A DNA stretch of 64,000 nucleotides from Gallionellaceae bacterium (lineage in GTDB: Bacteria > Pseudomonadota > Gammaproteobacteria > Burkholderiales > Thiobacillaceae): assembly GCA_028714875.1 (NCBI GenBank), contig JAQTLN010000008.1:62001-126000 (forward strand), in the 5' to 3' direction. How positions within the stretch are numbered: position 1 is the first letter of the stretch; each line of letters begins with the position of its first letter. Below are positions 5,463 to 60,312 of the stretch, one piece after another. The notes beneath the pieces are model-generated. The model searched no databases. It was given only the letters and a program-made list of their open reading frames with translations, and was not told where the DNA came from. The position numbers were made by a program, and so were the translations under genes.

Positions 5463-6599
5463 ATGACCCATAAAATCGCACTCATCACCGGCGTCACCGG
5501 CCAGGACGGCGCCTACCTTGCTGAATTCCTGCTCAACAAGGGCTATGAAGTGCACGGCATCAAGCGCCGCACCTCGATGTTCAACACCGACCGCATCGAC
5601 CACCTCTACCAGGACCCGCACGAGAGCGAGCGCAAGTTCATCCTGCACCACGGCGACCTCACCGACTCCTCCAGCCTGATCCGCATCATCCAGCAGGTAC
5701 AGCCCGACGAGATCTACAACCTCGCGGCTCAGTCGCACGTCGCCGTCTCCTTCGAAGAACCCGAATACACCGCCAACTCCGACGCCCTGGGCGCCCTGCG
5801 CATTCTCGAAGCCATCCGCATCCTCGGCCTGGACAAGAAGACCCGCTTCTACCAGGCCAGCACCAGCGAACTGTTCGGTTTGGTGCAGGAAATCCCGCAA
5901 AAGGAAACCACCCCCTTCTACCCGCGCAGCCCCTACGCCGTCGCCAAGCTCTACGCCTACTGGATCACGGTCAACTACCGCGAGGCGTATGGCATGTATG
6001 CCTGCAACGGCATCCTGTTCAACCACGAAAGCCCGGTGCGCGGCGAAACCTTCGTCACCCGCAAGATCACGAGAGCCTTGGCCCGGATCAAGCTCGGCCT
6101 GCAAGACTGCCTGTTCCTCGGCAACATGGACGCCAAACGCGACTGGGGTCACGCCAAGGATTACGTCGAAATGCAGTGGCTGATGCTGCAACAGGAGAAG
6201 CCGGAAGACTTCGTCATCGCCACCGGCGTGCAGTACTCGGTCAGAGACTTCGTCGACGCCGCCGCCAAAGAGTTAGGCATGCAAATTCACTGGGAAGGGC
6301 AGGGCGTGGAAGAAAAAGGCTACCTTCTCCCCTCCCCCCCCGGGGGAGGGGCCGGGGGAGAGGGAACAACGCATCGACAAGCGAAACCCATCGTCGCCGT
6401 CGACCCGCGCTACTTCCGCCCCACCGAAGTGGAAACGCTGCTGGGCGACCCGTCCAAGGCCAAGGCCAAACTGGGCTGGACCCCGAAAATCACCTTCGAT
6501 GAGCTTGTCGCGGAAATGGTGCGCGAAGACCTCAAAGCCGCGGAGCGCGACGAACTGGTCAAGAAGCACGGCTACAAGACCATGGATTACCGCGAGTGA
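5463..6599 (+). CDS. gmd: GDP-mannose 4,6-dehydratase
   Basis: Converts GDP-D-mannose to GDP-4-keto-6-deoxymannose with NADP. The start is the ATG at 5463, giving [22 protein letters not shown], because the Rossmann motif GVTGQDG lies a few residues in. The longer frame back to 5385 only reads the end of the previous gene. The SDR catalytic [10 protein letters not shown], the GDP-mannose-specific [17 protein letters not shown] and the C-terminal [18 protein letters not shown] are all present. A palindromic repeat at 6323-6366 (about residues 288-301, rich in Pro and Gly) sits in frame in the loop before VDPRYF, making that loop longer than in other GMDs. The gene is followed immediately by fcl, completing GDP-L-fucose synthesis. 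Confidence 0.97.
6323..6366. repeat. Family B repeat inside gmd
   Basis: CCTCCCCCCCCGGGGGAGGG followed by GCCGGGGGAGAGGG, palindromic, in frame with gmd. Confidence 0.85.
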
Positions 6600-6604
6600 G
6601 CGCC

Positions 6605-7576
6605 ATGGACCAGAACGCCAAGGTCTACATTGCCGGCCATCGCGGCCTGGTCGGCTCCGCGTTGCTGCGCAATCTGCGCGGTAAAAATTGTAACAACCTC
6701 CTCACCCGCACCCATGCCGAACTGGATCTGACCAACCAGGCCGACGTCGAAGCCTTCTTCGCACAAGAAAAGCCCGACTATGTATTTCTGGCCGCCGCCA
6801 GGGTGGGCGGCATCCACGCCAATAACGAATACCCGGCCGAATTTATCCGCGACAACCTCGCCATCCAGACCAACATCATTCACGCGGCGTGGAAGAACCA
6901 AGTCAAACGCCTGCTGTTTCTCGGTTCCAGTTGCATCTACCCCAGGCTATGCCCGCAGCCGATGAAAGAGGAGTACCTGCTCAGCGGCCCCCTGGAGCCC
7001 ACCAACCGGCCCTACGCTCTGGCCAAGATTGCCGGCATTGAAATGTGCTGGAGCTATAACCGCCAGTACGGCACGCAATATCTCGCCGTCATGCCAACCA
7101 ACTTGTACGGCCCCGGCGACAACTACCACCCGGATAACTCCCACGTCATCCCGGCCCTGATCCGCAAGTTTCACGATGGCAAAACCAACCACGCTCCCAC
7201 TGTCACGGTGTGGGGGTCCGGTACGCCGAAACGGGAGTTCCTCTACAGCGAAGACATGGCCGATGCCTGCGTCTACCTGATGAATTTGACGGATGAACAG
7301 TTCAATACCCTGCTCGGCAGCGATGAAACCAGAACCGGCATCTTCATGCCGCCATTGGTCAACATCGGTGTCGGTGAAGACCTCAGCATCAAGGAACTGG
7401 CGGAAACCGTGAAGGCCGTTGTGGGCTACCAGGGCGAGATCGTGTTCGACGCCAGCAAACCCGACGGCACGCCACGCAAGCTGCTGGATGTCTCCCGTCT
7501 GCACAGCCTGGGCTGGGAAGCCAGGACCGACTTCAGGCAAGGCCTGGCCCAGGCCTATCGAGACTTTCTCGGATGA
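6605..7576 (+). CDS. fcl: GDP-L-fucose synthase
   Basis: A bifunctional 3,5-epimerase and 4-reductase that turns GDP-4-keto-6-deoxymannose into GDP-L-fucose. The NADP motif [11 protein letters not shown] is at the N-terminus, with the family-typical [14 protein letters not shown], the GSSCIYP serine segment and catalytic YALAKIAG, plus NLYGPGDNY. The ATG at 6605 is preferred. A GTG at 6596 overlapping the gmd stop is an alternative that adds three residues. The 3' end overlaps the next gene as ATGA. Length of 323 residues is normal for the family. Confidence 0.97.
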
Positions 7577-8511
7577 ACGACGACGCCCTGGTATTTTCCG
7601 CCAAGGATGGCCTGGGTAACCGTCTGCGCGCCCTGGTCGGTTTCCGCGCCCTGGCCGAATTCCAGCAGCTTCCGCTGTTGCTGCATTGGGCGCGTGATGG
7701 CGCCTGTGACGCGGAATTCACGGATTTGTTCGAGACCGCGGGGTGGGAAGCTGTACGCCTGATCGACGCCGAAGAGGCTGCGGCGCGCAAAGCGAGCCAT
7801 CCGGAGCAGTACCACTATTCCTCGGTCTGGTTTACCGAAGTCTGGCTGCGGCATGGTCAGGCGCTTTGCTCATGCGATGAGTTCTCCCGTGCCGCGGTCA
7901 AGTATCTGCGCCTGCTACGTCCGCGCCATGAGTTGCAATCTCGCGTCGATGAATTTGCTCAGGCGCGGAACCTCGCCCAGTGCACCGGACTACACATTCG
8001 CATGACCGACAACGTGCATTCCTACGACTGGTGGGTCAAGAACGACCCCCACTTCGATCTGGAAAAAGTGTCGCAAATTGAAGGATTTCAGGCGGCCATC
8101 AAGGTGCTGGCGGACAAAGGCGAGCGCGCTTTCCTCTGCACCGACAACCAGGAAATCGCCCCGCGACTCAGTTCAACCTTCAATAATCTGGTCGTCTACC
8201 AGAAAGCATTTGATCCGCAGGGATTTAAACATCATGTGAGAACTCATTACAGCGTGCCTAGCCGATTCCAGCGGGCCTTCGACCAGATCAAGGCGGCGTT
8301 CGGCAAGGCCCCGCCAAGTTCATGGCGGACTACGGATGTCGCCGATGCGCTCATCGAAATGATGCTATTGAGCCGCTGCAAGCAGGTTATCGGCACTTAC
8401 TACAGCAGTTTCAGCCAGGTCAGCGCGTTAATCGGTGGCATCCCCTTGTATCGCATGGAAGGCATTTCTGCTGTCGAAGATGCTTTTATTCGCGGTCTTT
8501 TAGCCCGGTAG
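7573..8511 (+). CDS. Putative fucosyltransferase of the NodZ/FUT8-like superfamily
   Basis: A 312-residue protein overlapping fcl by 4 bp. The N-terminal [18 protein letters not shown] resembles the GxGNRL loop of the GT-B O-/alpha-1,6-fucosyltransferase superfamily. GLHIRMTDN matches the donor-binding HxRxTD motif, FLCTDN resembles the following TDD segment, and [13 protein letters not shown] resembles the conserved SSFS element. Its direct coupling to the GDP-fucose synthesis genes supports GDP-L-fucose as donor. What is seen is the motif order; the fucosyltransferase assignment is an inference from motifs and context. No membrane segment is apparent. Confidence 0.7.
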
Positions 8512-8548
8512 ATGGCGGCGGGATGAATTCTCCGAGATATGCCCTGGC

Positions 8549-9619
8549 ATGACCGATACGAAGAAATACGCTTATATCGACGCCATGAGAGGAATGGCCA
8601 TACTCATGGTTATCCTGGTTCACACATCACAGTCGATCGCGGACAAAACCAGTTTTGTGGCAAATGCGGCGCTGGGCCAATTTGGGGTGCAATTGTTTTT
8701 TGTGGCCAGTGCCTTGACGCTGTGCATGTCATACGAACAGCGTCTGAATGATAAACATCGGCTTGTCTCGTTCTTTCTGCGCCGGTGGTTCAGGATCGCG
8801 CCACTCTATTTTATTGGAATCCTGCTGTATTTCCTGATCAGCGCCTACCGAGAATTGTATCTTGGCCTTTTCTACGATTTCTTTCAGAATTACAGCTTGT
8901 TCAATATCCTCTCCAATATCTTCTTGCTGCACGGATTGATACCATCGGCCAATAACAACGTTGTTCCCGGGGGCTGGTCTATTGGCACGGAAGCATTATT
9001 CTATCTCACTTTTCCAGCACTCTACTGGTGGCTTGATAGCATTCACCGCATCTTGTTTGTCTGGGGCGTATATATGGCAATACTGCTCCTGCTCGCCCTG
9101 ATCGGGGCGTTGCATGTAAGTAACAATACTTTTACTTATTTCAGCATACTGATTCAGCTTCCAGTATTTATCAGCGGTTTTCTCTTATACCGCCTGCGCC
9201 ATATCACACAGCATCCTCTACTCGCATCCGGAATGTGGATCTGCTTGGTTGCATTCCTGATTCTCTGGTATTACTGGCGTCTCCAGCCGGTTCGATTCCT
9301 ATTACTCCCGGCGCTCAGCGGGCTGTTGTTTTGTTTTGTCGGTCTACACCTCGCGCGGCTAACCCATATCCCCCGTTTCATTAGCGAAATCGGCCGCCGA
9401 AGTTATTCCATGTATATTTTTCATTTTCTCGCGGCATGGCATCTTGTGCCTTTGCTTGATACCCGGATTACTGGCGCGCTTGGTGGAAACCTTTCTTTAC
9501 TTATCAATTTTTTCGTTGCCACAATACTGACATTCTGGCTCTCCGGCTACAGTTTCAAATATCTGGAGAAATATTTTGTCGCAAAAGGTAACCAGTTTAT
9601 TGAAAAGCGGTTTCAATGA
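8549..9619 (+). CDS. Acyltransferase family 3 membrane protein (OafA/YrhL-like)
   Basis: A 356-residue polytopic membrane protein with about ten hydrophobic segments. The N-terminus has YIDAMRGMAILMVILVHTSQ, where the Arg and His match the catalytic or acyl-binding motif of acyltransferase 3. FGVQLFFVASALTL is also typical. These enzymes O-acetylate or otherwise acylate polysaccharide units at the inner membrane. The base composition is visibly AT-richer than its neighbours, which suggests more recent transfer or relaxed codon use. It starts 37 bp after the putative fucosyltransferase and is followed by the sulfotransferase, fitting a decoration step. Confidence 0.9.
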   Translation: MTDTKKYAYIDAMRGMAILMVILVHTSQSIADKTSFVANAALGQFGVQLFFVASALTLCMSYEQRLNDKHRLVSFFLRRWFRIAPLYFIGILLYFLISAYRELYLGLFYDFFQNYSLFNILSNIFLLHGLIPSANNNVVPGGWSIGTEALFYLTFPALYWWLDSIHRILFVWGVYMAILLLLALIGALHVSNNTFTYFSILIQLPVFISGFLLYRLRHITQHPLLASGMWICLVAFLILWYYWRLQPVRFLLLPALSGLLFCFVGLHLARLTHIPRFISEIGRRSYSMYIFHFLAAWHLVPLLDTRITGALGGNLSLLINFFVATILTFWLSGYSFKYLEKYFVAKGNQFIEKRFQ

Positions 9620-9649
9620 ACTCGAATATGGCATCAACAAGGACTCCAC

Positions 9650-10600
9650 ATGCACAGCTTCAGCAAGCTCGGAAAGATTCTTGATCCGGAAATTCGCCGC
9701 AAGAATATCCGTGCGTTGCAATATGCCATCCGGGGCGGTTATTGGGATGTTTTCCAACCGACGCAACCTGACCCGGTATTTGTTCTCGGCTGCTCCCGTT
9801 CCGGCACTACAGTGACCTACGAGACCTTGGCGGCGGCCCCACAATTCCTCAGCCTGGGCGTGGAAATCCCGGAGTTCTGGAATGGCCTCTATGGCCCGCT
9901 CAACAATGGTTGGTTATCCGAAGCGGCAGGGGCGGAACCGGCACGCCCGGAACACAGAAGTGCCGCCCTGCGCTACTTTTACCAGCGACTCGGGCGTGGC
10001 CAGGTGCTGGACAAGACCTGCATCAATACGCTGCGCGTACCTTATCTGCATGCCCTGTTTCCCAACGCGAAATATGTGTTCATCCAGCGCGACGGGCGCG
10101 ACAACATCAGCTCCATGATCGACGGCTGGCGGCTGGGCCGCAGTGACGGCGCGTTCCATCTGACTCAGTTTTTCGGTCCCTTCCCGGAGCCGGTTGCGAT
10201 CAATGACGGTGAATTCAATGAGTGGCACTTTTTCCTGCCGCCCGGTTGGCGTGACTACAACCGGGCCAGCCTGGAGGAGGTATGCGCGTTTCAGTGGCTT
10301 TCCGCGAACCGCCTGGCACTGGAGGGGAAACGCCTGATTCCCGAGGAACGCTGGATACAACTGCGTTATGAGGATCTGTTCGAGCGCCCGGTGGAGATGT
10401 TCCATGAAGCCTTCGAGCGCTTGGACATTCCGTTCAACGAATCCCTGCGGGCGCGCTGCGCCAACCTCGCCCCGACCAGCATCGTCAAGGGGGCGCCCAA
10501 GAAGCAGAAGTGGAAGGATCACAACCCCGCAGCCATCGAACGTATCCTGCCCATGATTCGGCCCCTCATGCTGGAACTGGGTTATGACGTCGATGCCTGA
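9650..10600 (+). CDS. Sulfotransferase family protein
   Basis: A 316-residue protein with the PAPS-binding 5'-phosphosulfate loop FVLGCSRSGTTVTYE (residues about 44-58) and the 3'-phosphate-binding region YVFIQRDGRDNISSM, both in the expected order and spacing. The ATG at 9650 is preceded by AAGGA at 6 bases. The enzyme would transfer sulfate from PAPS to a hydroxyl, probably on the exopolysaccharide made by this locus; the acceptor is inferred. There is no transmembrane segment. The 3' end overlaps the next glycosyltransferase by 17 bp. The putative sulfatase-fold protein two genes downstream might seem a counterpart, but see that entry. Confidence 0.9.
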   Translation: MHSFSKLGKILDPEIRRKNIRALQYAIRGGYWDVFQPTQPDPVFVLGCSRSGTTVTYETLAAAPQFLSLGVEIPEFWNGLYGPLNNGWLSEAAGAEPARPEHRSAALRYFYQRLGRGQVLDKTCINTLRVPYLHALFPNAKYVFIQRDGRDNISSMIDGWRLGRSDGAFHLTQFFGPFPEPVAINDGEFNEWHFFLPPGWRDYNRASLEEVCAFQWLSANRLALEGKRLIPEERWIQLRYEDLFERPVEMFHEAFERLDIPFNESLRARCANLAPTSIVKGAPKKQKWKDHNPAAIERILPMIRPLMLELGYDVDA

Positions 10601-11522
10601 ACACGCCACGCCCGTGTCGATCGAATCCGATGCCATGCCGCGCGTTTCGGTCATCATCCCGGCCTATAACGCCGCCTGGTGTGTGCGCCGCGCGCTGGAT
10701 AGCGTGCTGGTCCAGGACTATCGGGATTTCGAGGTGATCGTGGTGGATGACGGCAGCCAGGATGATACGGCCGCCGTTCTGGCCGGTTATGGCGATGCCG
10801 CGCGGGTACTGAGCAAGCCCAATGGCGGCTTGTCCAGCGCGCGCAATGCGGGCATTGCCGCCGCGCGCGGCGAATATGTCGCGTTTCTCGATGCCGATGA
10901 CTGGTGGCTGCCAGCCAAGCTGTCGCGTCAGGTGGCGCTGATGGACGGGCAGCCCACGCTGCTGTTCTGTTCCACCACCACCTCGGCCCAAACCCCCGAA
11001 GGCCGACGTCTGCCCGACTGGCGTTGCGGAAACGGCCAACGCGCCGCGCTGGAATGCATCTTCGCGGTCAATGCTTATGTGGCGGGCAGTGGTTCGAGCG
11101 TGCTGGCTCGCCGCGCGGCTTTCGCGCGCGTGGGCGGTTTTGACGAATCCCTGCGCAGCCTGGAAGACATCGACATGTGGATGCGCCTGGCCGCGTTGGG
11201 TGACTATGCCTGTATCGACGAGCCGCTGACGGTGATCGAAAAGAGCGCCAACAGCATGAGCGGCAACCTCGATGTCATGCGCCATGCCGCCATCCGGGTC
11301 ATGCGCAAGAATCGCGCCCTGCTGGCGCCGCCCCTGCGTGGCCGATTCTGGCGGACGGCTTATGCCGGCATGCTGTCGGACTATGCCAAGTGGGCGTATC
11401 GGCGGGGACGCACCGCGCGGGCGTTGGGCGATCTCGCATGGGCATTGATGTTGGCGCCGTTGAGCCGCGGCCGCTTGATCATCAGCCTGCTGCTGGCGAT
11501 GCTGGCACGGCAACAGATATAG
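10584..11522 (+). CDS. Glycosyltransferase family 2
   Basis: A 312-residue GT2 enzyme with PRVSVIIPAYNAAWCVRRAL, the nucleotide-binding VIVVDDGSQDDTAAVL, the acceptor-side GGLSSARNAGIA and the metal motif AFLDADDWW, very like the GT2 at 1733. The ATG at 10584 lies inside the end of the sulfotransferase gene. A second in-frame ATG at 10593 is an equally good start. It is the last glycosyltransferase on the plus strand of the locus. Sugar specificity is unknown. Confidence 0.92.
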   Translation: MTSMPEHATPVSIESDAMPRVSVIIPAYNAAWCVRRALDSVLVQDYRDFEVIVVDDGSQDDTAAVLAGYGDAARVLSKPNGGLSSARNAGIAAARGEYVAFLDADDWWLPAKLSRQVALMDGQPTLLFCSTTTSAQTPEGRRLPDWRCGNGQRAALECIFAVNAYVAGSGSSVLARRAAFARVGGFDESLRSLEDIDMWMRLAALGDYACIDEPLTVIEKSANSMSGNLDVMRHAAIRVMRKNRALLAPPLRGRFWRTAYAGMLSDYAKWAYRRGRTARALGDLAWALMLAPLSRGRLIISLLLAMLARQQI

Positions 11523-11527
11523 CCACA

Positions 11528-25277: not shown

Positions 25278-26567
25278 TCAGGAGGAGGCATTCTCCAACA
25301 AGGTAATCCAGTGCACCACCGGCACGCCGCTGGCGGCGGCAAGGTGGCTCTGGCAGCCGATGTTGGCGGTGGCGATGAGGTCGGGCCGTTCCGCCTGCAA
25401 GTTGCCGAGCTTGCGCTCGCGCAGTTGGCCGGCGAGTGCCGGCTGCAACAGGGAATAGGTGCCGGCGGAGCCGCAGCAGAGATGCGATTCCTGTACCGGC
25501 ACCAGTTCATGGCCGAGGCCGGTGAGGATGACCTCAATCACGCCACGCACTTGCTGGCCGTGTTGCAGGCTGCACGGCGGGTGAAAGGCGACGCGACGCG
25601 GCGCGCCCCCGCGCAGGCGGCTCAGGTCTTCGCGCGCCAGCACTTCCGCCAGATCGAGCGTTAGTTCGGAGACGCGCGCGGCCTTTTCCGCGTAGGCCGG
25701 ATCGTCGCGCAGATGGTGGCCATATTCCTTGACCGTGCCGCCGCAGCCGCTGGCGGTCATGACGATGGCCTCGATGTTGCCACCCTCGCCCGCTTCGAGA
25801 TAGGGCCACCAGGCGTCGATGTTGCGGCGCATGGCGGCTTTCGCGGCTTCCGGCGCGGCCAGGTGCTGGTCGATGGCGCCGCAGCAACCGGCCTCGGGCG
25901 CGGCGAAGAGCTGAATACCGAGAGAGGCGAGCACACGCGCGGCAACCAGATTGGTTTCTGGCGCCAGCGCCGGTTGCACGCAACCCTCCAGCACCAACAT
26001 GCGGCGGCTGCTCTTCTCCCCCCTTTGCCAAAGGGGGGCGGGGGGGGATTTGTCGACGCTGACAGGCGTGGAACGGTTACGGAAATCCCCCCCGCCCCCC
26101 TTTGATAAAGGGGGGAGATGTTCGCGCAGCGTCGCCGGCAGCGCCCAGGTCACGCCACGCCCCAGCTTCAGCAGCGAGCCGAACAGCGTGGGTGAAGCCA
26201 GCGTTCGCCGCAGCCCCATGCGCAGCAAGCGTTCGCCCAGCGGGCGCGGGCTCAGTTTTTCCACCACCTCGCGGCCGATGTCGACGAGGCGGCCGTATTG
26301 CACGCCGGAGGGGCAGGTGGTTTCGCAGTTGCGGCAGGTCAGGCAGCGGTCCAGGTGTTCGCGCGTCACGGCGGTCACCGGCTGGCCTTCCAGCATCTGC
26401 TTCATCAGGTAGATGCGCCCGCGCGGCCCGTCGAGTTCGTCGCCCAGGAGTTGATAGGTGGGGCAGGTGGCGTTGCAGAAGCCGCAATGCACGCAATTAC
26501 GCAGGATGGCTTCGGCTTCCCGGCCCTGCGCGGTGTCACGAATGAAATCGGCGAGATTGGTTTGCAT
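25278..26567 (-). CDS. glcF: Glycolate oxidase iron-sulfur subunit
   Basis: A 429-residue subunit. The ATG at 26567 (MQTNLADFIRDTAQGREAEA) overlaps the glcE stop as TGATG; the frame upstream of it is antisense. Two 4Fe-4S motifs are CVHCGFCNATCPT and CLTCRNCETTCPSG. Cys-rich CCG-domain segments (EAGCCGAID, SGCGGTVKEYGHH, SHLCCGSAGTY) follow. It passes electrons from GlcD to the quinone pool during glycolate oxidation to glyoxylate. A 105 bp inverted pair of palindromic repeats (26014-26118, residues about 150-184, Gly/Pro/Lys-rich) is inserted in frame between the ferredoxin part and the first CCG domain. Confidence 0.95.
   Translation of the reverse strand: MQTNLADFIRDTAQGREAEAILRNCVHCGFCNATCPTYQLLGDELDGPRGRIYLMKQMLEGQPVTAVTREHLDRCLTCRNCETTCPSGVQYGRLVDIGREVVEKLSPRPLGERLLRMGLRRTLASPTLFGSLLKLGRGVTWALPATLREHLPPLSKGGGGDFRNRSTPVSVDKSPPAPLWQRGEKSSRRMLVLEGCVQPALAPETNLVAARVLASLGIQLFAAPEAGCCGAIDQHLAAPEAAKAAMRRNIDAWWPYLEAGEGGNIEAIVMTASGCGGTVKEYGHHLRDDPAYAEKAARVSELTLDLAEVLAREDLSRLRGGAPRRVAFHPPCSLQHGQQVRGVIEVILTGLGHELVPVQESHLCCGSAGTYSLLQPALAGQLRERKLGNLQAERPDLIATANIGCQSHLAAASGVPVVHWITLLENASS
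26014..26118. repeat. Inverted pair of family A repeats inside glcF
   Basis: Two facing copies of the CCCCCCTTTG-N-AAAGGGGGG hairpin with GGGGGGGATTT tails, about 30 bases apart. The arrangement equals the intergenic element at 30632. Confidence 0.9.
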
Positions 26568-27730
26568 CAGAGACCTTGGTACAGGCGGCCGGGATTGAAC
26601 AGGTCGTGCGGGTCGAGCGACCGTTTCACCCGCTGGTGCAGCGCCAGCATGGCCGCGGGAAGGGGATGGAACACTTCGCCCGTGCTGTCGTGGCCACGGA
26701 ACAGCGTGGCATGACCACCGAGGACGGCAACCTGGCGGCGGATGGCCTCGGCGGGTTCGTCGGAGACGATCCAGCGCAAGGCGCCGCCCCATTCAGTCAG
26801 TCCCTCTCTCGGCAAGGCCGGCGCGGCGGCGGGCAGAGAAACGCGCCATAGCGGCGCATCGGTGAGGAAGAACGGCAGGGTCTGCTCGCGCGCCTCGGCC
26901 CAGAGGGCGGAGGCATCTCGTTCCCACGCTCCAGCGTGGGAACGCAGTTCTTCTCCACCCATAGCCGCATGCGCGGCCTGGACGCCCTGGGTGCTGCCGG
27001 ACAGGCGCACGTACAGGCGGCCAGCTTCATAAAGGGTGGCGGACAAGGGCAGTGGCCGGCGCCCCCATTCAATCTGCCGGGTCGCGGCGGTGGCCGCATC
27101 CAGCTCAAACACCAGGGTGCGTTCCTCGGCCGGGCGCGGCAGGACTTTGACCGAGACTTCCAGCAACACGCCCAGTGTCCCCAACGCCCCCACCATCAGG
27201 CGCGAGAGGTCGTAACCGGCGACATTCTTCATTACCTGACCACCCAGGCGCAGCACTTCGCCACGACCGTTGAGCAGCTTCACGCCGAGCACGGCATCGC
27301 GCACCGAGCCGCCCCAGGGCCGGCGCGGGCCGGACAGGCCGGTGGCGACCATGCCGCCGAGGGTAGCTTGCCCCCTCCCCCCCCGGGGGAGAGCCGGGGA
27401 GAGGGAAGCCGCGTTATCCATGTGCAAGCGTTGCTCCCTCTCCCCCGGCCCCTCCCCCGGAGGGGGAGGGGAGAAGTGCGGCGGCTCGAACGGCAGCATC
27501 TGGTTGTTCGCCGCCAGCAGTGTCTCGATTTCCGCCAGCGGCGTGCCGGCGCGGGCGGTGAGGACCAGTTCCGAGGGTTCGTAGCGGACGTCGCCGGCAT
27601 GGCCGGAGACATCCAGTGGCTCGCCCAGGCAGGTTCGGCCGTAAAAGGATTTGCTGCCGCCACCCTGGATGCGTAGCGGGGTGCGGTCGGCGATGGCTTG
27701 TTTTATCCGTGCGATCAGTTCGGTTTCCAT
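26567..27730 (-). CDS. glcE: Glycolate oxidase FAD-binding subunit
   Basis: A 387-residue FAD-binding PCMH-type protein. The ATG at 27730 (METELIARIKQAIADRTPLR) is chosen; a TTG three codons earlier is possible. LRIQGGGSKSFYGR and ATLGGMVATGLSGPRRPWGG form the FAD pocket, and the C-terminus HDLFNPGRLYQGL is typical. Two separate palindromic repeats interrupt it in frame: one pair at 27368-27477 (residues about 85-121, Pro/Gly-rich, before the second FAD motif) and a short one at 26919-26944 encoding SHAGAWER (residues about 263-271). Both appear tolerated as loops. It functions with GlcD and GlcF. Confidence 0.93.
   Translation of the reverse strand: METELIARIKQAIADRTPLRIQGGGSKSFYGRTCLGEPLDVSGHAGDVRYEPSELVLTARAGTPLAEIETLLAANNQMLPFEPPHFSPPPPGEGPGEREQRLHMDNAASLSPALPRGGRGQATLGGMVATGLSGPRRPWGGSVRDAVLGVKLLNGRGEVLRLGGQVMKNVAGYDLSRLMVGALGTLGVLLEVSVKVLPRPAEERTLVFELDAATAATRQIEWGRRPLPLSATLYEAGRLYVRLSGSTQGVQAAHAAMGGEELRSHAGAWERDASALWAEAREQTLPFFLTDAPLWRVSLPAAAPALPREGLTEWGGALRWIVSDEPAEAIRRQVAVLGGHATLFRGHDSTGEVFHPLPAAMLALHQRVKRSLDPHDLFNPGRLYQGL
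26919..26944. repeat. Short perfect palindrome (family G, SHAGAWER) inside glcE
   Basis: CGTTCCCACGCT and AGCGTGGGAACG, 12 bp arms around two bases. Read in frame it gives SHAGAWER. Confidence 0.9.
27368..27477. repeat. Inverted pair of family B repeats inside glcE
   Basis: Copy one near 27370-27407 and an inverted copy at 27435-27476 with unit CCCTCTCCCCCGGCCCCTCC. In frame with glcE. Confidence 0.9.
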
Positions 27731-30631: not shown

Positions 30632-30734
30632 GCTCCCCCCTTTCTCAAAGGGGGGCTGGGGGGGGATTTATACAAGCGCCGTGCATGGGGCCGTCGTGCA
30701 AATCCCCCCTAGCCCCCCTTTGGAAAAGGGGGGG
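30632..30734. repeat. Inverted pair of family A repeats
   Basis: Two facing copies of the unit with stem CCCCCCTTT...AAAGGGGGG followed by CTGGGGGGGATTT. The first copy starts near 30633 and the second, inverted, ends near 30733, with about 30 unrelated bases between them. The 150 bp gap between the kinase and transketolase-like genes holds nothing else. Confidence 0.85.
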
Positions 30735-33054: not shown

Positions 33055-33818
33055 GAAACATGAACGAAGACAAAACCTCCTCCATCCAGGTCATCGACCG
33101 CATGTCCGCCCTGCTCGACGCGCTCGCCGCGCGGGAAAATGGCGCCTCTCTGAAATATCTCGGCGCGGAGACTGGCCTGCACCCGTCCACAGCCTTCCGC
33201 ATCCTTGCCTCGCTGAGTCAGCATGGCTTTGTCGCCCGCGACGAGGCGGGCCTCTATCTGCTCGGCCCGCACCTCCTGCAACTGGCGGCGAAAGTGCGAG
33301 TGGGCCTGGACGTGCGCGCGGTGGCGCGGCCGGAAATGGAATGGCTACGCGATCAGATCGGCGAGACGGTGAACCTCACCGTGCGCCAGGGCGACGAAGT
33401 GGTCTACATCGAGCGGGTCACCTCCAACCGCATGATGCGGGTGGAGCAGGTGATCGGCAGCCGCGCGCCGCTGCACGTCACCGCCGTCGGCAAGCTGATG
33501 CTGGGCGAGGTGGGCGCGGCCGCCACCCGCGACTACGCCAAACGCACCCGCCTGCCCGCCTACACGGTGAACACCCGCCAGGAAATCAAGACGCTGCTGG
33601 AGGACATCGGCGTCAGTACCGCGCGCGGCTATGCCCTTGATGACGAGGAGGCGGAACTGGGCGTCGGCTGCATCGGCGCACTGGTGCGCGACGCCAGCGG
33701 CGCGGCGGTGGCCGGCCTGTCGGTTTCAGCGCCGATGGAGCGGCGCAAGATGGATTGGGTGCCGCTGGTACAGGAAGCCGCGCGTCGCGTCTCGGCCAAA
33801 CTGGGCTATGCGGGGTGA
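33051..33818 (+). CDS. IclR family transcriptional regulator
   Basis: A 255-residue regulator. N-terminal winged helix (SIQVIDRMSALLDALAAREN, HPSTAFRILASLSQHGF) and C-terminal effector-binding IclR domain (GETVNLTVRQGDEVVYIERV, APLHVTAVGKLML, RGYALDDEEAELGVGCIGA). The start may be the ATG at 33051 or the one at 33060; neither has a clear Shine-Dalgarno. It is divergent from the transketolase-like gene, so it most likely controls that gene and the kinase-glcDEF set in response to a small acid. The effector is unknown. Confidence 0.95.
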   Translation: MRNMNEDKTSSIQVIDRMSALLDALAARENGASLKYLGAETGLHPSTAFRILASLSQHGFVARDEAGLYLLGPHLLQLAAKVRVGLDVRAVARPEMEWLRDQIGETVNLTVRQGDEVVYIERVTSNRMMRVEQVIGSRAPLHVTAVGKLMLGEVGAAATRDYAKRTRLPAYTVNTRQEIKTLLEDIGVSTARGYALDDEEAELGVGCIGALVRDASGAAVAGLSVSAPMERRKMDWVPLVQEAARRVSAKLGYAG

Positions 33819-33847
33819 TACCGGATTGGCCGCCGGCCGTGGCCGGC

Positions 33848-33920
33848 ATGTAGCGCCGGCGTCTCGCCGGCTTCGTGGGCCTGATCAGAAGAACGAGCCG
33901 GCGAGACGCCAGCGCTACAT
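33848..33920. repeat. Palindromic repeat (family C) between convergent genes
   Basis: ATGTAGCGCCGGCGTCTCGC begins the left arm (33848-33872) and its near-perfect complement ends at 33920 in GCGCTACAT. The 25 bp arms are separated by 23 bases. It fills most of the gap between the IclR and chemoreceptor gene ends and could terminate both transcripts. Confidence 0.88.
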
Positions 33921-33953
33921 GAAGGGGCCGCCGCTACATGCCGTGGCCGCGGA

Positions 33954-37851: not shown

Positions 37852-38883
37852 ATGACCACACCCCTTAACCTCCTCTTCATCGCCGACCCCCTGGAAACCT
37901 TCAAGACCTACAAGGATTCCACCTACGCCATGATGGTCGAGGCGGCCCGGCGCGACCACACGATCAGCGCGATGCTGGCGGGCGATCTGGTGTGGAAGGC
38001 GGAGTGGGTGGTGGGGCGCACGCAGCGGGTTGTTCTCTCCGCTTCCGCAAAAGGGGGCGGGGGCGGCACCTCCGAAAATCCCCCCCAGCCCCCCTTTGGC
38101 AAAGGGGGGGGCACGCACACAACGCCCTGGTTCGAGCGCGGTGAGGCGGAATGGCACGATCTGGCGTCGTTCGACGCGGTGATCATGCGCACCGATCCGC
38201 CCTTCGATCAGGCCTACCTCTATGCCACCTGGTTGCTGGAGATGGCCGAACGGCAGGGGGCGCGGGTGTTCAACTCGCCGCGCGCCTTGCGCGATTTCAA
38301 CGAGAAACTGGCGATCGCGCGCTATCCGCGCTTCATCGCGCCGACGCTGGTGACCTGCCACGCTGATCTGATCCGCGAGTTTCTCGCCGAGCAGGGCGAC
38401 ATCGTGGTGAAGCCGCTCAACGCGATGGGCGGCGCCATGGTGTTCCGCCTGCGTCCGGATGATGCCAACCTGGGCGCGATCCTGGAGACCATCACCCAAT
38501 ACGGGCGCGAGACCGTGATGGCGCAGCGCTATCTGCCGGAAATCAAGGAGGGCGACAAACGCATTCTGGTGATCGCCGGACAGGCGGTACCGTATTGCCT
38601 GGCGCGCATTCCCGCCGCGGGCGAGACGCGCGGCAACCTGGCGGCGGGCGGCACCGGCGTGGCGCGGCCCTTGTCGGAACGCGACTGGGAGATCGCCCGC
38701 GCTCTGGGGCCGGAATTGAAGGACGCCGGCCTGTTGTTGGTCGGCCTGGACGTGATCGGCGATTGCCTGACCGAAGTGAATGTCACCAGCCCCACCTGCT
38801 TCCAGGAAATCACCCAGCAGACCGGCTTCAATGTGGCGGGCATGTTCATGGATGCGCTGGAGCGCGAGGTGAACGGTGAGTAA
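37852..38883 (+). CDS. gshB: Glutathione synthetase
   Basis: A 343-residue ATP-grasp enzyme joining gamma-glutamylcysteine and glycine. [20 protein letters not shown] is the family N-terminus; [35 protein letters not shown] and [18 protein letters not shown] are the substrate and ATP-grasp motifs. It is about 28 residues longer than E. coli GshB because a degenerate family A repeat (38045-38113, residues about 65-87, rich in Gly and Pro) is inserted in frame in the N-terminal domain, in the loop before [13 protein letters not shown]. Active-site motifs are intact, so it is probably functional. Confidence 0.95.
38045..38113. repeat. Degenerate family A repeat pair inside gshB
   Basis: A full copy (38075-38112, AAAATCCCCCCCAGCCCCCC then TTTGGCAAAGGGGGGG) and a decayed facing copy at 38045-38060. 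Confidence 0.85.
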
Positions 38884-39949
38884 TCCATCTCGGGTGCTTC
38901 GCGCGCCCTATGGCTTCTGGGCGTTGCTGCTGGTCTTGTTGCTCACCGGCTGTGGCGAGCGCATCCACAAGCAGCAGTCCTATGTATTCGGCACCCTGGT
39001 GGAAATCACGATTTACGGCGAGGAGGAGGACAAGGCGCGGCGTGTCACCGACCAGGTGCTGCGTGATTTCGACGAGATGCACCAGACCCTGCATGCCTGG
39101 CAGCCGGGTTCGCTGGAACGCCTCAATGGTTTGATTGCCCTGGCGACGCCACAAGCACCGATCCGTATCGCGTTGCCGCCCGGTCTGATTTCGACCCTGA
39201 CCGATGCGGCGCGCCTGTCGGAACAAGGCGAGCACCTGTTCAATCCGGCCATCGGCAATCTGGTGCGGCTGTGGGGCTTTCATTCCGACACGTTCGAGCC
39301 GCGCCTGCCGGACCCGAAAGAAATCGCGCGCCTGGTCAAGGCCAACCCGCGCATGTCCGACTTCAAGATCACCGGCGTCATGCTGGAAGCCGGCAATCCG
39401 GCGATGCGCCTGGATCTGGGCGGTTATGCCAAGGGCTATGCGCTGGATCTGGCGGCGGCCTATCTGAAAAGCCAGGGGGTGAACAACGCGCTGATCAACA
39501 TCGGCGGCAACATCATGGCGCTGGGGAAGAAGGGGAGTCAGGCCTGGAAGGTGGGCATCCAGCACCCGCGCCGCGCCGGCGCCCTGGCGATGCTGGAATT
39601 GCATGACGGCGAAGCGATCGGCACCTCCGGCGACTATCAGCGTTTCTTCGAGGTGAACGGCAAACGCTATTGCCATCTGATAGACCCGCGCAGCGGCTGG
39701 CCGGCGGATCAGACCCAGGCGGTGACGGTAATCGCGCATGGGCCACACGCCGGCACGCTGTCGGACGTGTCCAGCAAACCGCTATTCATCGCCGGACCGG
39801 GCGATTGGCGGCGAATGGCGAAAAAAATGGGCATCGGCGAAGTCTTGTTCATCGCCGCCGACGGCGGCGTCAGCGCCACTCGCGCGATGAACGGCCGCCT
39901 CATCTGGGAGAAACCGGCGCCCGCCGTGAAGGTGGTCGAAGCGCCGTAG
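38876..39949 (+). CDS. apbE: FAD:protein FMN transferase (lipoprotein)
   Basis: A 357-residue protein starting with GTG at 38876, overlapping the gshB end by 8 bp. A lipobox (LLTGCGE) follows a hydrophobic signal, so it is anchored to a membrane. The ApbE core includes [39 protein letters not shown] and [10 protein letters not shown]-like [10 protein letters not shown]. It attaches FMN to a Thr of target proteins such as NqrB/C, RnfG or NosR. The TAG stop (39947-39949) is formed by the first bases of the family D repeat that follows, so the original stop may have been elsewhere. Confidence 0.95.
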
Positions 39950-39978
39950 GTTGGGCAAAGCGAAGTGTGCCCAACCCG
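39945..39978. repeat. Palindromic repeat (family D) at the apbE stop
   Basis: GTAGGTTGGGCA then AAGCGAAG then TGTGCCCAACC form an inverted repeat. Its second to fourth bases supply the TAG stop of apbE. A close relative is at 60251-60287. Confidence 0.8.
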
Positions 39979-41063: not shown

Positions 41064-42550
41064 CCAACTCCGATCGTCCAAAAATTGCGCTGAAGCGCCC
41101 CGTCGAGGCCGCGAAAGAGCCCGCCAAGCCGTCCAAGTTCCGCCCCAAGCTGGGCGACCGGCGCGCCGGCAACAAGCCGCGCCCCCCTGAACCTGACGCA
41201 ACCACGGGGCAGCAGGATAGACCAGCCGCGAAGCCGCGCAAGCCGAGGCCGGAGGGAAAGTTCGCCTCCCCCGACTCCAGGCCACGCGCCCAGTCGGAGA
41301 GAAACGCGCCCCCTCCCCCCCCGGGGGAGGGCTGGGGAGAGGGGCGGCGGCGTAGATCGGCGGCATCGACCGAGTCAGCGTCGTTCCCTCACCCCCGGGG
41401 TGGGAAGGGAGAGCGGCATCGCTTCTTCGTCTCCTGTCCGCGCGGCCTGGAAGATGAGCTGGCGCGCGAGTTGGCGGATATCGGCGCCGGCGACCAGATG
41501 CCGGCGCGCGGCGGCGTGATCTTCCTGGGCGACATGACGCTGGCCTGGAAGGTCAACCTGTGGAGCCGTCTGGCGATTCGCGTCCTCTGGCAGGTGGCCG
41601 ATGGCCACTATCGCAATGAGGACGATCTCTACGAAGTCGCCATGTCGCTCGACTGGCCCAGCCTGTTCGACGTTTCGCGCACGATCGCGGTCACCACCGT
41701 GGGCAAATCCAGCCCGCTGAAAAGCCTCAACTTCGTCACCCTGCGCATCAAGGACGCGGTGTGCGACCGCTTCCGCTCCGCCATCGGCGAACGTCCCAGT
41801 GTGGAAACCCGCGACCCGCAGGTGCCCATCACCTTGTTCCTGTCCGAAGAGAAATTCACCCTCTACCTCGATCTCTCCGGCAGTCCGCTCAATCGCCGCG
41901 GCTACCGGGTCGAGGCCGCTCCCGCGCCGCTCAACGAAAACCTGGCCGCCGGGTTGTTGAAGCTGTCCGGTTGGACCCCGAACGTGCCGCTCTACGACCC
42001 CATGATGGGCGGCGGCACCATCCTGCTGGAGGCGGCGCTGATCGCGCTCAACATCGCCCCTGGCATCAATCGCCACTTCGCCTTCGAGAATCTGGCCAAT
42101 TTCGACATGATCGAGTGGCAACGCCTGCGCAAGAACGCCCAGGCGGCGGCGCTGGAACCGCATCCCCTGGCCATCTTCGGCTCCGACATCGACCCGCTCA
42201 TGGTGCGCGCCGCCGGCCTCAACCTGAAAGCCGCCGGTGTGTTCGATTGTGTCCGTCTGATGGAAGCCGACTTTCTCAACGTCGACCCGCCCGTGCCGGA
42301 AGGCATCATCGTCAGCAACCCGCCCTACGGCGTGCGTCTCGGCAGCGAAGACGACCTGATCGCCTTCTACCACGCGGTCGGCGACAACCTGAAACAGCAC
42401 TTCCCCGGCTGGACCGCCTGCATGATCTCGGGCGACCCCGATTTTCCCAAGTCCATCGGCCTCAGCGCCAACCGCCGCACACCGCTGTTCAACGGCCCGC
42501 TGGAATGTCGGCTGTACGAATACCGGCTGGTGGCGGGAAGCAATCGCTGA
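41054..42550 (+). CDS. THUMP-domain class I rRNA methyltransferase (RlmL N-terminal-like)
   Basis: A 498-residue protein. The conserved part starts at RFFVSCPRGLEDELARELAD (residue about 124). THUMP follows, and the methyltransferase domain has NVPLYDPMMGGGTILLEAAL, FGSDIDPLMVRAAG and the N2-guanine motif IIVSNPPYGVRLG. It resembles the part of RlmL that makes m2G2445 in 23S rRNA. The first 120 residues are basic and low in complexity and include an in-frame inverted pair of family B repeats (41306-41416, residues about 84-121). TTG at 41054 is the only start that reaches the frame before the THUMP domain, so the N-terminus is uncertain. Confidence 0.9.
   Translation: MSSSNSDRPKIALKRPVEAAKEPAKPSKFRPKLGDRRAGNKPRPPEPDATTGQQDRPAAKPRKPRPEGKFASPDSRPRAQSERNAPPPPPGEGWGEGRRRRSAASTESASFPHPRGGKGERHRFFVSCPRGLEDELARELADIGAGDQMPARGGVIFLGDMTLAWKVNLWSRLAIRVLWQVADGHYRNEDDLYEVAMSLDWPSLFDVSRTIAVTTVGKSSPLKSLNFVTLRIKDAVCDRFRSAIGERPSVETRDPQVPITLFLSEEKFTLYLDLSGSPLNRRGYRVEAAPAPLNENLAAGLLKLSGWTPNVPLYDPMMGGGTILLEAALIALNIAPGINRHFAFENLANFDMIEWQRLRKNAQAAALEPHPLAIFGSDIDPLMVRAAGLNLKAAGVFDCVRLMEADFLNVDPPVPEGIIVSNPPYGVRLGSEDDLIAFYHAVGDNLKQHFPGWTACMISGDPDFPKSIGLSANRRTPLFNGPLECRLYEYRLVAGSNR
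41306..41416. repeat. Inverted pair of family B repeats inside the rRNA methyltransferase gene
   Basis: Copy one at 41306-41345 (CCCCCTCCCCCCCCGGGGGA) and an inverted relative at 41382-41416, in frame in the low-complexity N-terminal region. Confidence 0.85.
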
Positions 42551-42560: not shown

Positions 42561-42597
42561 CTTCCCCCTTTCCCAAAGGGGGGCTGGGGGGGATTTC
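42561..42597. repeat. Single family A repeat
   Basis: A CCCCCTTTCCCAAAGGGGGG hairpin followed by CTGGGGGGGATTT lies 10 bp after the methyltransferase stop. The rest of the 183 bp gap before yqgE shows no gene. Confidence 0.85.
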
Positions 42598-48968: not shown

Positions 48969-49043
48969 ATGTAGAGCCGGCATCCTTGCCGGCTCGTCCG
49001 TGCGGATTGCGAAAGACACCGGCAAGGATGCCGGCGCTACATC
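48969..49043. repeat. Palindromic repeat (family C) between argJ and the ATPase gene
   Basis: ATGTAGAGCCGGCATCCTTG and CAAGGATGCCGGCGCTACAT are near-inverse arms with about 35 bases between. It starts directly at the argJ stop codon. Confidence 0.88.
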
Positions 49044-51527: not shown

Positions 51528-51543
51528 TGCGGACCCGTCGCTG

Positions 51544-53555: not shown

Positions 53556-53557
53556 TT

Positions 53558-55024: not shown

Positions 55025-55033
55025 GGGGTTCTC

Positions 55034-55092: not shown

Positions 55093-55098
55093 GCGTGC

Positions 55099-56013
55099 TC
55101 AGGGTTTGATCAGATCCACTTTGATGCCTTTCCTGCACTCCAGCGTGCGGTGCTTGAGGGCGGGCAGGCTGGTGCGCAGACCGGCCTGGTAGGTGGGGTT
55201 GAGGCCGGCGATGACCACGCCGGAGCCGCGCGGCAGGCGGTCGAGAACGTTGCCCCAGGGATCGACGATCATGCTGTCGCCGTGGGTCTCGCGGCCGGAG
55301 ATATGGTAGCCGCCCTGCGCCGGCGCGATCACGTAGGCCAGGTTCTCGATGGCGCGGGCGCGGATCAGGGTTTCGAAGTGCGCCTTGCCGGTGGTGGCGG
55401 TGAAGGCGGCGGGCACCACGATCATGTCCACGTCGCCCATCGCCCGGTACAACTCGGGGAAGCGCAGGTCGTAGCAGATCGACAGGCCGAGGCGGCCGAA
55501 CGGGGTTTCCACCACCACCACGCGGTCGCCCGGCTCGATGGTGCTTTCCTCGCGATAGTGCTCGTTGCCGAGGTCGAGGCCGAACAGGTGGATCTTGTCG
55601 TAGCGCGCCGCCAACTTGCCCTTGTCGTCGTAGACCAGGCAGGCGTTGCGCACCTTGTCGGGGTTGTCGCAGGCCATCGGAATCGAGCCGCCGACCAGCC
55701 AGATGCCGTGCTTCTTGGCCTGGGCGGCGAGGAAGCGTTGCATCGGCCCCTTGCCCGGCTGTTCCCGCACCTTGATCTTGTCGGTGTCGTTGAGGCCCAT
55801 GATGGAGAAGTTTTCCGGCAGCGCCACCAGCTTGGCGCCGGCGTTCGCCGCCATGCCGATGAGTCGCTCGGCTTCCGCCAGGTTGGCCGCCACATTGGGG
55901 CCGGAGGCCATCTGGATGGCCGCCACCCGAGTGATGCCGGTAGTTTCCTTGGCGGGTTTCGGGGCGGCGCGGGATTTGGTCTTGGCGAAGCTGGAGGGTT
56001 TGACGCGGGTCAC
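55099..56013 (-). CDS. Nitrilase-superfamily amidohydrolase (Nit1/NIT2-like)
   Basis: A 304-residue enzyme. GTG at 56013 is preferred because AAGGA lies 7 bases upstream; the frame reaching 56160 has no support. The Glu-Lys-Cys triad is visible in [19 protein letters not shown] and [16 protein letters not shown]. This active-site wording matches deaminated-glutathione amidases (Nit1), which repair a glutathione by-product, and omega-amidases. An N-terminal basic stretch of about 28 residues precedes the domain. It is upstream of tldD, a frequent arrangement. Confidence 0.92.
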
Positions 56014-56126
56014 GAGGGCATCCTTGCTGCGTGAGGGAAGGGCAAGCGTGGCTTGAGGGTACACAAGGATTTCGCCGCGCCGCAATAGCAAATCGCCCAA
56101 ACGGACGCTATAGCCGGCTAACCGGC

Positions 56127-58325
<2,199 letters not shown>

Positions 58326-58382
58326 CGTAGCGTGCGCCGCGCGCACGAAAAGCACTCATTCGTGCGCGCGGCGCACGCTACG
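58326..58382. repeat. Perfect palindrome (family H) abutting the priA start
   Basis: The 24 bp left arm starts CGTAGCGTGCGCCGCGCGCA and its exact complement ends at 58382, with a 9-base loop. It touches the priA ATG with no space for a Shine-Dalgarno. Confidence 0.92.
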
Positions 58383-58458
58383 TGGCAGATCGTCCGATCA
58401 ATATTCATGTTGCAGAGCCGCATTTGTGCCGGTCAATTAACGCTCGAAGTTAAAGTGG

Positions 58459-58706
58459 TTTGTCACAACAAAAGGCGAAGCCGATGCCATTCAAGGAGGT
58501 TTTCGAGTTGTCCACCGAACCTGTGGATAACCATGTGGACAAGCTGTCACCAAACCGTCAAAAACACTTGTAGAACGGGTGCTTATGCCATTGGCCTGTT
58601 TTTTATGCACAAAACAAATTATTGAAAATCAATGAGTTACGTTAGGCGACGGGATATATCCAAAGGCAGGTGCGGGAAGTTAAGTCAAGCGCATTAATGT
58701 GCATAA
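58459..58706. other. DnaA-box cluster with IHF site in the priA-dacB gap
   Basis: The 388 bp gap has no gene and, beyond the palindrome, is AT-richer than its surroundings. Perfect DnaA boxes are TGTGGATAA (58522-58530), TTATGCACA (58603-58611) and TGTGCATAA (58698-58706). One-mismatch boxes are TTTGTCACA (58459-58467) and TGTGGACAA (58534-58542). AATCAATGAGTTA (58627-58639) fully matches the IHF consensus WATCAANNNNTTR. This layout resembles DnaA-titrating or -reactivating loci (datA, DARS) or a secondary origin. No DnaA gene is near. Function is inferred. Confidence 0.65.
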
Positions 58707-58713
58707 GTGCTTG

Positions 58714-60312
58714 CTAATTTAATGTTTTTCCGACGCTCTCCCGCGCGCTTGAAGCCGTTTCACCCACCCGGTAGCCCAAAGTGTCGGTGGCCCATTCCAC
58801 CAGTGCGTCCTGCGCGCGGCCGGCGGCGCCGGCGTTGCGATGGTTGATCAGGAACACGACGACGCGGCGATGCCCATTCGGGGTGCGTGCGTAGCCGGCC
58901 AGGTTACGCACGCCATTGAGGCTGCCGCTCTTCAGCCAGGCCTGGCCTTGAGCCGCGGAATCGTTGAGGCGATTTTTTTGCGTGCCTTCCAGCCCCACCG
59001 CCGGCAGGGAGGCCGCGAACTCGAACCAGGCCGGTTGCAGGGTGGCCCAGCGCAGCAATTTGGCCAGCGAGGCCGCCGAGATGCGCTCGATGCGGGAAAG
59101 GCCGGCGCCGTTTTCCAGCACCAGCTTGCTGCATTCGAGGTCGCGCTCCGCCAGCCAGGCGCGTAGCGCGCGCGTGCCCTTGTCCCAGGTGGCGGGCGCG
59201 CCGAATCGGGCGGCGCCGAGATTGAGCAGCAGCATCTTGGCCATGACGTTGTTGCTGAACTTGTTGGTGTCGCGCACCAGTTGCGCGACCGGCTGCGAAT
59301 CGAATTCCAGCAACGGCCGCGCCGTGGCCGGTGTCTGGCCGCTCACCACGCCGCCACTGAGTTGGCCACCCAGCTCGTTCCAGAGGCGGCTGAACCAGGC
59401 CGCCGTGGTGGCGTCCGGCGGCAGCAGGTTGAGGCTGATGCTCTGATCGCCGCAAGCGGTGGGATAACGGCCGGCCAACAGCACCTCCGGTCCGGAAAAT
59501 GCGCCCGAGTCGCAATCCGCGTCGGAGGCACACCGCCGATGCGCTCCTGTAGCGCCGGCATCCTTGCCGGCGTCTTTTACCCCCGCCGGCAAGGATGCCG
59601 TCGCTACCAGTTCGCGCAGGCCATCACAGGCGCCGTCGCCAGGCGTCAACTGGTTGACGAGCGTGGGGGCGTCGAGCGGCGGGTCGAAGCGCGTGCCGAC
59701 CTTGGCGCCGTCACTCGCCAGTCGCAAGGACACGGTATTGAAGTTGACCAGCAGGGCGGCGGGCGGGGCGTTGTAGGGCCGCAGCGGCGCCTGGTCGAAG
59801 GCGGCTGGGTCGATCGGGTCGAGGCGGTAGTAATCACCGTCGAGCAGCACCCCGCCGCGTATCTCGCGCACCCCGCGCGCGCGGATTTCCCTGAGCAACA
59901 GCCAGAAGCGTTCGACAGTCAGAGACGGGTCGCCGCCACCCTGCAAGACCAGGCGGCCGTCGAGGATGCCGTCCTTGAGCGTGCCATCCAGAAAGACGCG
60001 GGTTTTGAAGGTGTGAGCGGGGCCGAAACTGTCGAGCGTGGCCAGGGTGGTGACCAGTTTCATCACCGAGGCGGGATTCAGCGAACGCGCGCCGCCATGC
60101 ATCAGTATGGGTTCGGGGGAATCGAGGTCGTGGACCACGATGGCCACGTTGCTGTCGGGAATGCCGGCCTGTTTCAGCGCCAGGGCGACGGAGGGCGGCA
60201 GGGCGGCATGGGCGTCGGCCGCCAGGAAAAAGAGAATCGCGGCGGCAAACCGTAGGCTGGGCAAAGCGAAGCGTGCCCAACCTACACTCGCATCAACGCT
60301 CCACAAGGTCAT
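58714..60312 (-). CDS. dacB: D-alanyl-D-alanine carboxypeptidase/endopeptidase (PBP4)
   Basis: A 532-residue penicillin-binding protein 4 with a signal peptide ending in DAHA. Motifs: SVMK (NPASVMKLV), SNN (KFSNNVMAK) and KSG (LKSGSLNGV; usually KTG). It cleaves peptidoglycan cross-links or terminal D-Ala in the periplasm. Two repeats shape it: a family D copy at 60251-60287 encodes residues about 9-21, the n-region of the signal ([12 protein letters not shown]), and a family C copy at 59546-59610 inserts about 22 residues (Lys/Asp/Ala-rich) in the domain between the SVMK and SNN motifs. The ATG lies inside the end of the epimerase gene. Confidence 0.94.
59546..59610. repeat. Family C repeat inside dacB
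   Basis: CTGTAGCGCCGGCATCCTTG and CAAGGATGCCGTCGCTACCAG are inverse arms. The element is in frame within dacB and has the same outer sequence as the intergenic copies. Confidence 0.88.
60251..60287. repeat. Family D repeat at the dacB 5' end
   Basis: CGTAGGCTGGGCA, AAGCGAAGCG, TGCCCAACCTAC form an inverted repeat that is translated as part of the DacB signal peptide. Confidence 0.85.

What the first reader, a model, noticed from the sequence alone, without database searches (positions are those of the whole stretch)
6323..60287. Palindromic repeats inserted in frame into at least six conserved proteins
The same short repeat families that occupy intergenic gaps (e.g. 30632, 42561, 63489, 48969) also occur inside gmd, glcF, glcE (twice), gshB, the THUMP methyltransferase gene and dacB (twice). 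Each keeps the frame and adds roughly 9-37 residues, mostly Gly/Pro-rich, placed between conserved motifs. This is like the Rickettsia palindromic elements, but with several unrelated families in one GC-rich genome. It implies a mobile or gene-conversion process that tolerates translation, and a source of new loops in essential enzymes.
Basis: partly seen in the sequence, partly recalled or inferred. Interest (0 to 1): 0.82.

Follow-up and report, generated by a model that had tools for sequence, protein, structure and literature searches.

The report
Repeats that reinvade the same loops
In a group of related environmental bacteria, short palindromic DNA repeats have jumped in frame into genes, and a few protein loops have been invaded several times, by different repeats in different species.

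Summary
Two details fail: the glcE "two" repeats are one doublet, and the second dacB repeat lies in the unconserved N-terminus. Relatives with short or empty loops show these are gains.

In an 864-kb sample I found five families; 21 of 152 elements lie inside genes. Four families sit mostly between genes; only family B (12 of 23) is common inside. Doublet lengths show no triplet bias, so selection, not the element, keeps the frame.

Three loops are reused. The glcE loop holds family B in six genomes of four genera, needing six changes on the tree. The glcF loop holds family A, B, E or G in different species, in 8 of 11 cases one common in that genome. gmd was hit about three times. Four other loops show repeats only in the own genome or its closest relatives. 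A doublet inside glcF lies inverted in one relative, frame still open.

Intragenic REPs and Rickettsia palindromic elements are known, and same-site REPs in recB are in print. This is a new variant; what moves families A and B is unknown.

The parts
6324..6380 (+). gmd insert, one family-B unit (HMM hit 6327-6366, reverse orientation); residues 288-306 of GDP-mannose dehydratase (gene 5463-6599)
   Evidence: the loop is 30 aa in empty orthologues, 46 aa here
26013..26117 (-). glcF insert, family-A doublet 26017-26116 with single-copy spacer; residues 151-185 (gene 25278-26567)
   Evidence: spacer inverted in relative G017
27368..27472 (-). glcE insert, family-B doublet 27372-27473; residues 87-121 (gene 26567-27730)
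   Evidence: absent in G006, G011, G017, G022
38038..38118 (+). gshB insert, degraded family-A doublet (intact arm 38076-38109); residues 63-89
   Evidence: the only stretch with pLDDT below 50 in the model is 69-89
41306..41413 (+). RlmL-type methyltransferase N-terminal linker, family-B unit 41310-41343 plus a shortened second arm; residues 85-120
   Evidence: my gene caller started this gene downstream (41471), so one search counts the unit as intergenic
59503..59607 (-). dacB insert, family-C (GTAG) doublet 59548-59607; residues 236-270
   Evidence: absent in all 29 relatives aligned
60247..60288 (-). family-D (GTAG) unit at the dacB 5' end, residues 9-22; doubtful as an insertion into the protein
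30634..30733 (.). intergenic family-A doublet; relative G017 has a D-type palindrome in this gap instead (judged by eye)
42563..42596 (.). intergenic family-A single unit
48970..49041 (.). intergenic family-C doublet, kept in the same orientation in G006
63542..63580 (.). intergenic family-B unit
39946..39976 (.). family-D unit overlapping the stop codon of the gene at 38894-39949

Best explanation
Several families of short, non-autonomous mobile palindromic repeats (REP/BIME-like) insert around this genome. Most insertions into genes break them and are lost. Those that happen to keep the frame and fall in a floppy loop survive. A few loops are so tolerant that they have been colonised several times independently, often by a family common in that lineage. 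Once in place, doublets may be inherited, lose an arm, or flip between their inverted arms. Shown: short or empty sites, several changes per loop on the tree, different families in one loop, one inverted doublet inside a gene, intergenic bias. Inferred: that transposition (rather than copying by repair) brings them in, that selection removes the rest, and that loop tolerance rather than target preference explains reuse.
For: Multi-copy families. Short or empty sites in close relatives: glcE in G006, G011, G017, G022; gmd in G022, G011, G006; dacB in all 29 others aligned. Of 10 own intragenic elements with both flanks aligned in a fetched relative, 6 are absent there and 4 present. Tree of 29 taxa: glcE six parsimony changes for six carriers (24 taxa with a glcE state), gmd three for three, glcF six over four families. 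In relatives' loci, own genome excluded, 13 of 26 repeat elements fall in three loops making up 3.8% of the sequence. The six genomes with A in glcF have 161, 103, 79, 70, 26 and 11 exact A units; the 23 others whose loop could be read have 0-11. The GshB insert is the only stretch under pLDDT 50, between two strands.
Against: No transposase was linked to A or B: G016 and G020 carry 79 and 26 A units but no Y1_Tnp hit. No target duplication was seen by eye at the aligned borders of five loops. In G022 the glcF loop holds G although G is rare there (2 elements in 800 kb), and G005 holds A with only 11 units. Stop-free frames do not explain why B is so often intragenic and C so rarely. Four other loops show no repeats outside the closest relatives, so reuse is not general. 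Some glcF A copies may share descent, and tree nodes near the own genome are weakly supported (0.607 for G006+G011).
Confidence: 0.7

Rival explanations
1. Target preference: the repeats insert preferentially at particular DNA sequences or hairpins, so loops are reused because the DNA attracts insertion, not because the protein tolerates it. A repeat already present may itself be the target.
For: Different families at one glcF site; an A doublet and a D-like palindrome in the same intergenic gap in G000 and G017; 120-121-nt A elements with a nested extra segment. IS elements are reported to target REPs (title and start of abstract of PMC1525189 in the listing).
Against: glcE inserts of different genera sit where relatives have a clean 19-residue motif. 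I saw no shared flanking motif by eye, but ran no statistical test for one.
Confidence: 0.3
2. One ancient insertion per loop, followed by many losses and by gene conversion between repeats that swapped the family.
For: G000 and G006 share inserts at three further loops that G011 lacks, and G017 shares one of them, so loss or an unresolved tree does occur. A putA-like and a heptosyltransferase-like gene have B at the same site in G000 and G022 (gene names recalled).
Against: The short glcE form is constant (19 residues in 24 of 30 genomes) and would need many precise losses; unrelated families are not expected to convert each other by homology.
Confidence: 0.13
3. Artefact: assembly error, frameshifted pseudogenes or mis-called starts.
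For: The genome is in 54 contigs; the dacB D repeat and perhaps part of the methyltransferase linker depend on the start chosen; G006 glcF has a stop codon at the repeat border.
Against: Frames are open in six genes, with conserved domain matches on both sides of the insert in five; the same loops carry in-frame inserts in other assemblies; related inserts are shared by G000 and G006.
Confidence: 0.04

Closest known systems
Rickettsia palindromic elements (RPE; Ogata 2000, 2002, known here only through passages of the review PMC10969869)
   Same: Several palindromic families inserted in frame in unrelated metabolic genes, with other copies outside genes.
   Different: Another bacterial clade; units of 24-40 nt (HMM lengths) and doublets of about 60-120 nt; strong intergenic bias for most families; one loop taken by different families in related species. 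Sequence relation to RPE not tested.
Intragenic GTAG/CGTC REPs (Di Nocera et al. 2013, PMC3733652; section 15 and part 1 of 2 of section 17 read)
   Same: REPs and dimers lie inside genes of many species, dimers and groups encoding 20-30 residues; linked tyrosine transposases; different REPs reported at about the same site in recB of two Xanthomonas species.
   Different: Families A and B lack the GTAG/CGTC tag; here loops were compared in up to 30 genomes each, with a link to copy number and an inversion in place.
Bacterial MITEs
   Same: Family A: short non-autonomous element with inverted arms.
   Different: No target duplication seen; no parent transposon identified (only Y1_Tnp was searched).

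Membership tests
GTAG/CGTC REP superfamilies | GTAG or CGTC tag beside a short stem-loop (families C, D, G, E) | tested here: met
   Consensus of C TGTAGCGCCGGC, D GTAGGTTGGGC, G CGTAGGTCAGG; E GTAGCCCGGAT
GTAG/CGTC REP superfamilies | Same tag in families A and B, the commonest in-gene families of this genome | tested here: not met
   Consensus of A starts AAATCCCCCC, of B TTCCCTCTCCCC
GTAG/CGTC REP superfamilies | Cognate RAYT gene flanked by units of the family | tested here: inconclusive
   Met for G: nine units around the Y1_Tnp gene of L019. A: no hit in five loci. B: one weak unit at the far edge of L016. C: two weak units near L017. A-rich genomes G016 and G020 lack Y1_Tnp hits
Rickettsia palindromic elements | In-frame insertion into unrelated genes by several palindromic families | tested here: met
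Rickettsia palindromic elements | Sequence relation to RPE families | not tested
   No RPE sequence was fetched
MITE | Terminal inverted repeats | tested here: met
   A: 42 of 60 elements are two arms in opposite orientation; 37 of these 42 are 94-101 nt long
MITE | Target site duplication | tested here: inconclusive
   None visible by eye at the aligned borders of five loops
MITE | Related autonomous transposon in the genome | not tested
   Only Y1_Tnp was searched

The most novel reading that the evidence does not exclude
A few loops of core enzymes act as standing landing sites for the mobile repeat pool of a lineage, so that the loop of GlcF or GlcE is rewritten again and again by whichever repeat is active, and the doublet inside it can flip in place, giving two in-frame versions of one enzyme loop.
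Probability: 0.2. Interest if true: 0.8.

Novelty: new variant of a known kind. Interest (0 to 1): 0.55.

Why it matters
It gives a natural replicated experiment on how proteins gain new loops: the same loop, in related species, with no insert, with one repeat family, or with another. It suggests that surviving coding insertions reflect the tolerance of the protein and the current repeat pool, and it offers testable cases (glcE, glcF) for measuring the cost of a 20-30 residue insert and for finding the unknown agent that moves families A and B.

Tried and rejected
Chance GC-rich similarity: rejected, reversed control 0 against 363. A resident RAYT as the driver of family A: no linkage in five loci and two A-rich genomes without Y1_Tnp hits; a missed or lost RAYT is not excluded. 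Triplet-length elements: intergenic A doublets 14, 13, 10 over the three classes. Stop-free frames as the cause of B's in-gene share: among non-internal elements B has 4.8 and C 4.5 of 6 frames open, yet 12 of 23 against 2 of 41 are internal. Universal loop reuse: not seen at dacB nor at three loops of two further host genes; those genes were picked among hosts whose insert G022 lacks, which biases against reuse. My first reading of the third of these loops missed an insert in G017; one search found it. Rows not used: the RND line (regex took a wrong element), wrong-frame or empty rows of kinase site 1, empty or wrong rows. Paper search returned nothing; claims about print rest on searches in one open-licence library.

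Full report
WHAT WAS CHECKED. The window is part of contig C8 of a 4.08-Mb draft genome. The closest named GshB relatives are metagenome assemblies labelled Pseudomonadota, Hydrogenophilales or Betaproteobacteria. Of these, L021, L022 and L038 are the genomes called G006, G017 and G022 here, matched by equal contig lengths.

THE REPEATS. Profile HMMs built from the sample gave five families. A is AAATCCCCCCCAG followed by CCCCCCTTTnnnAAAGGGGGG, usually as two inverted arms around a spacer of about 30 nt. B is TTCCCTCTCCCCCAG followed by a C-rich/G-rich hairpin. C, D and G are GTAG-tagged. A sixth GTAG family, E, is common in some relatives: 139 pattern hits on both strands in G011, 33 in G004, 32 in G021, 51 in G017, 22 in G006, 12 in the own genome, 3 in G022 (some sites count on both strands).

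WHERE THEY LIE. The sample is 40 stretches of 20 kb plus the window, 864 kb, with 734 genes called by a simple codon-usage gene finder written here. Elements intergenic / internal / at gene ends: A 50/7/3, B 9/12/2, C 30/2/9, D 8/0/4, G 13/0/3. Random placement would give 9%, 72% and 19%. So coding insertions are strongly depleted, least so in B (B against A, Fisher P 0.0002; outside the window alone 10 of 19 against 5 of 56, P 0.0002). The 21 internal elements lie in 20 genes, 15 of them outside the window. In 800 kb of G022 the same HMMs find A 3 elements (1 internal), B 14 (4), C 48 (6), G 2 (1).

EMPTY SITES. The glcE motif EPPHF..ATLGG is 19 residues in 24 of 30 genomes and longer in six. 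The gmd loop has 30 residues in 18 of 29 relatives. The dacB insert is in none of 29 relatives aligned. Of ten own intragenic elements with both flanks aligned in a fetched relative, six are absent there. Four are present: the putA-like and heptosyltransferase-like B inserts in G022, glcF in G017 and gshB in G006 (the first two gene names are recalled).

LOOP REUSE. glcE: the six carriers of B-type sequence (G000, G005, G007, G030, G031, G032; best HMM score 13.8 to 39 bits, weakest in G005) are in four genera, and the tree needs six changes. gmd: B-type hits in G000, G030 and G013 (the last only 14.9 bits), three changes. Eight further genomes have longer gmd loops, such as PSPHREMGQ in G021, without an HMM hit. 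glcF: family A in G000, G006, G017, G005, G020 and G016; E in G011, G021 and G004; G in G022; B (13.2 bits) in G015. Excluding the own genome, 13 of 26 repeat elements in 58 loci fall in these three loops, 3.8% of the sequence (binomial P 2e-12, not corrected for shared descent). gshB: other relatives (L026, L029) also have longer loops that read like translated repeats, but these were judged by eye and not by HMM.

CONTROLS FOR REUSE. Two further host genes from outside the window (a 1051-aa RND-pump-like and a 547-aa kinase-like protein, names recalled) gave three loops. In the RND loop, A is in the own genome and G006 and in none of 12 other readable relatives; G024 has a long loop without a hit. 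At kinase loop 1, B is in the own genome and G006, and in none of 19 other relatives readable. At kinase loop 2, A is in the own genome, G006 and, as a larger insert, G017; 23 other readable relatives have none, and G008 has a longer loop with no repeat recognised by eye. With dacB, four of seven HMM-tested loops thus have repeats only in the own genome or its closest relatives. Reuse is a property of some loops.

THE LOOP AND THE POOL. Exact family-A units per genome: 161, 103, 79, 70, 26 and 11 in the six genomes with A in glcF; 0-11 in the 23 others whose loop could be read. G011, G021 and G004 have E there and 139, 32 and 33 E hits. So in 8 of 11 occupied genomes the occupant is a common family. 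Against this: G005 has only 11 A units, G022 holds G although only 2 G elements lie in 800 kb, one of them this one, and B was not counted in G015. G036 has a weak A hit in the loop (12.3 bits) and no exact A unit.

INVERSION IN PLACE. The glcF spacer occurs once in G000 and once in G017, in none of the other 21 genus genomes searched at up to three mismatches, and in opposite orientation relative to the gene. Whole-element alignment scores are 91 direct and 160 inverted. Both frames are open with loops of equal length, 56 residues. An intergenic C doublet is also inverted in G017 (33 against 77). Two other doublets kept in a relative are not (144 against 28, 114 against 76). So two of the four doublets that could be scored are inverted. 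Elements also change size: the kinase loop 2 insert is a single unit in G000, a doublet in G006 and larger in G017. In G006 the glcF frame runs through the repeat but meets a stop codon at its right border, so insertion is not always harmless.

STRUCTURE. An AlphaFold2 model of GshB from 35 aligned sequences has mean pLDDT 87.4. Its only segment below 50 is residues 69-89, inside the insert and between strands 52-62 and 94-103. Low confidence there may partly reflect few aligned sequences.

MOBILISER. Five Y1_Tnp genes are in the genome. One is flanked by nine G units, the RAYT arrangement. None has an A unit within the fetched 1.5-kb flanks. G016 and G020 hold 79 and 26 A units with no Y1_Tnp hit. 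Families A and B therefore lack an identified mover.

COMPARISON WITH PRINT. Di Nocera and colleagues (PMC3733652, section 15 and part 1 of section 17 read) describe intragenic REPs in many species, discuss neutral insertion in linkers or loops, and note different REPs at about the same recB site in two Xanthomonas species. Rickettsia elements are summarised in PMC10969869 (passages seen). Coding palindromes of Nematomorpha mitochondria (PMC6649704, start of abstract and passages seen) are longer and perfect. The basic phenomenon is known. Capture of single loops by several families across a genus, its partial match to the repeat pool, and flipping inside a gene were not found in searches, which cover one open-licence library.

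Noticed in passing
L019 (G000:C11:3365-3622): A Y1_Tnp (RAYT-like) gene is surrounded by nine family-G GTAG repeats, the usual REP arrangement; no family-G element was found in the window itself.
   Followed up: partly
G000 contig C5, about 101286-102813: Eight family-A doublets spaced 204-205 nt apart form a tandem array with near-identical spacers.
   Followed up: no
G000:C1:153846, C1:308012, C3:57620, C8:7746 and L022 gshB loop: Some family-A elements are 120-121 nt long because of an extra segment containing GGTACCGAAGGGTAGGGGCTTCATCA, apparently nested in one arm.
   Followed up: no
window 39946-39976: A D repeat overlaps the stop codon of the gene at 38894-39949; in G006 a D-like palindrome lies in the same gap.
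   Followed up: no
window 33847-33921: Inverted pair of C-type repeats (26-nt arms, 96% complementary) in the gap after the gene ending at 33818; only one arm scored in the HMM scan.
   Followed up: no
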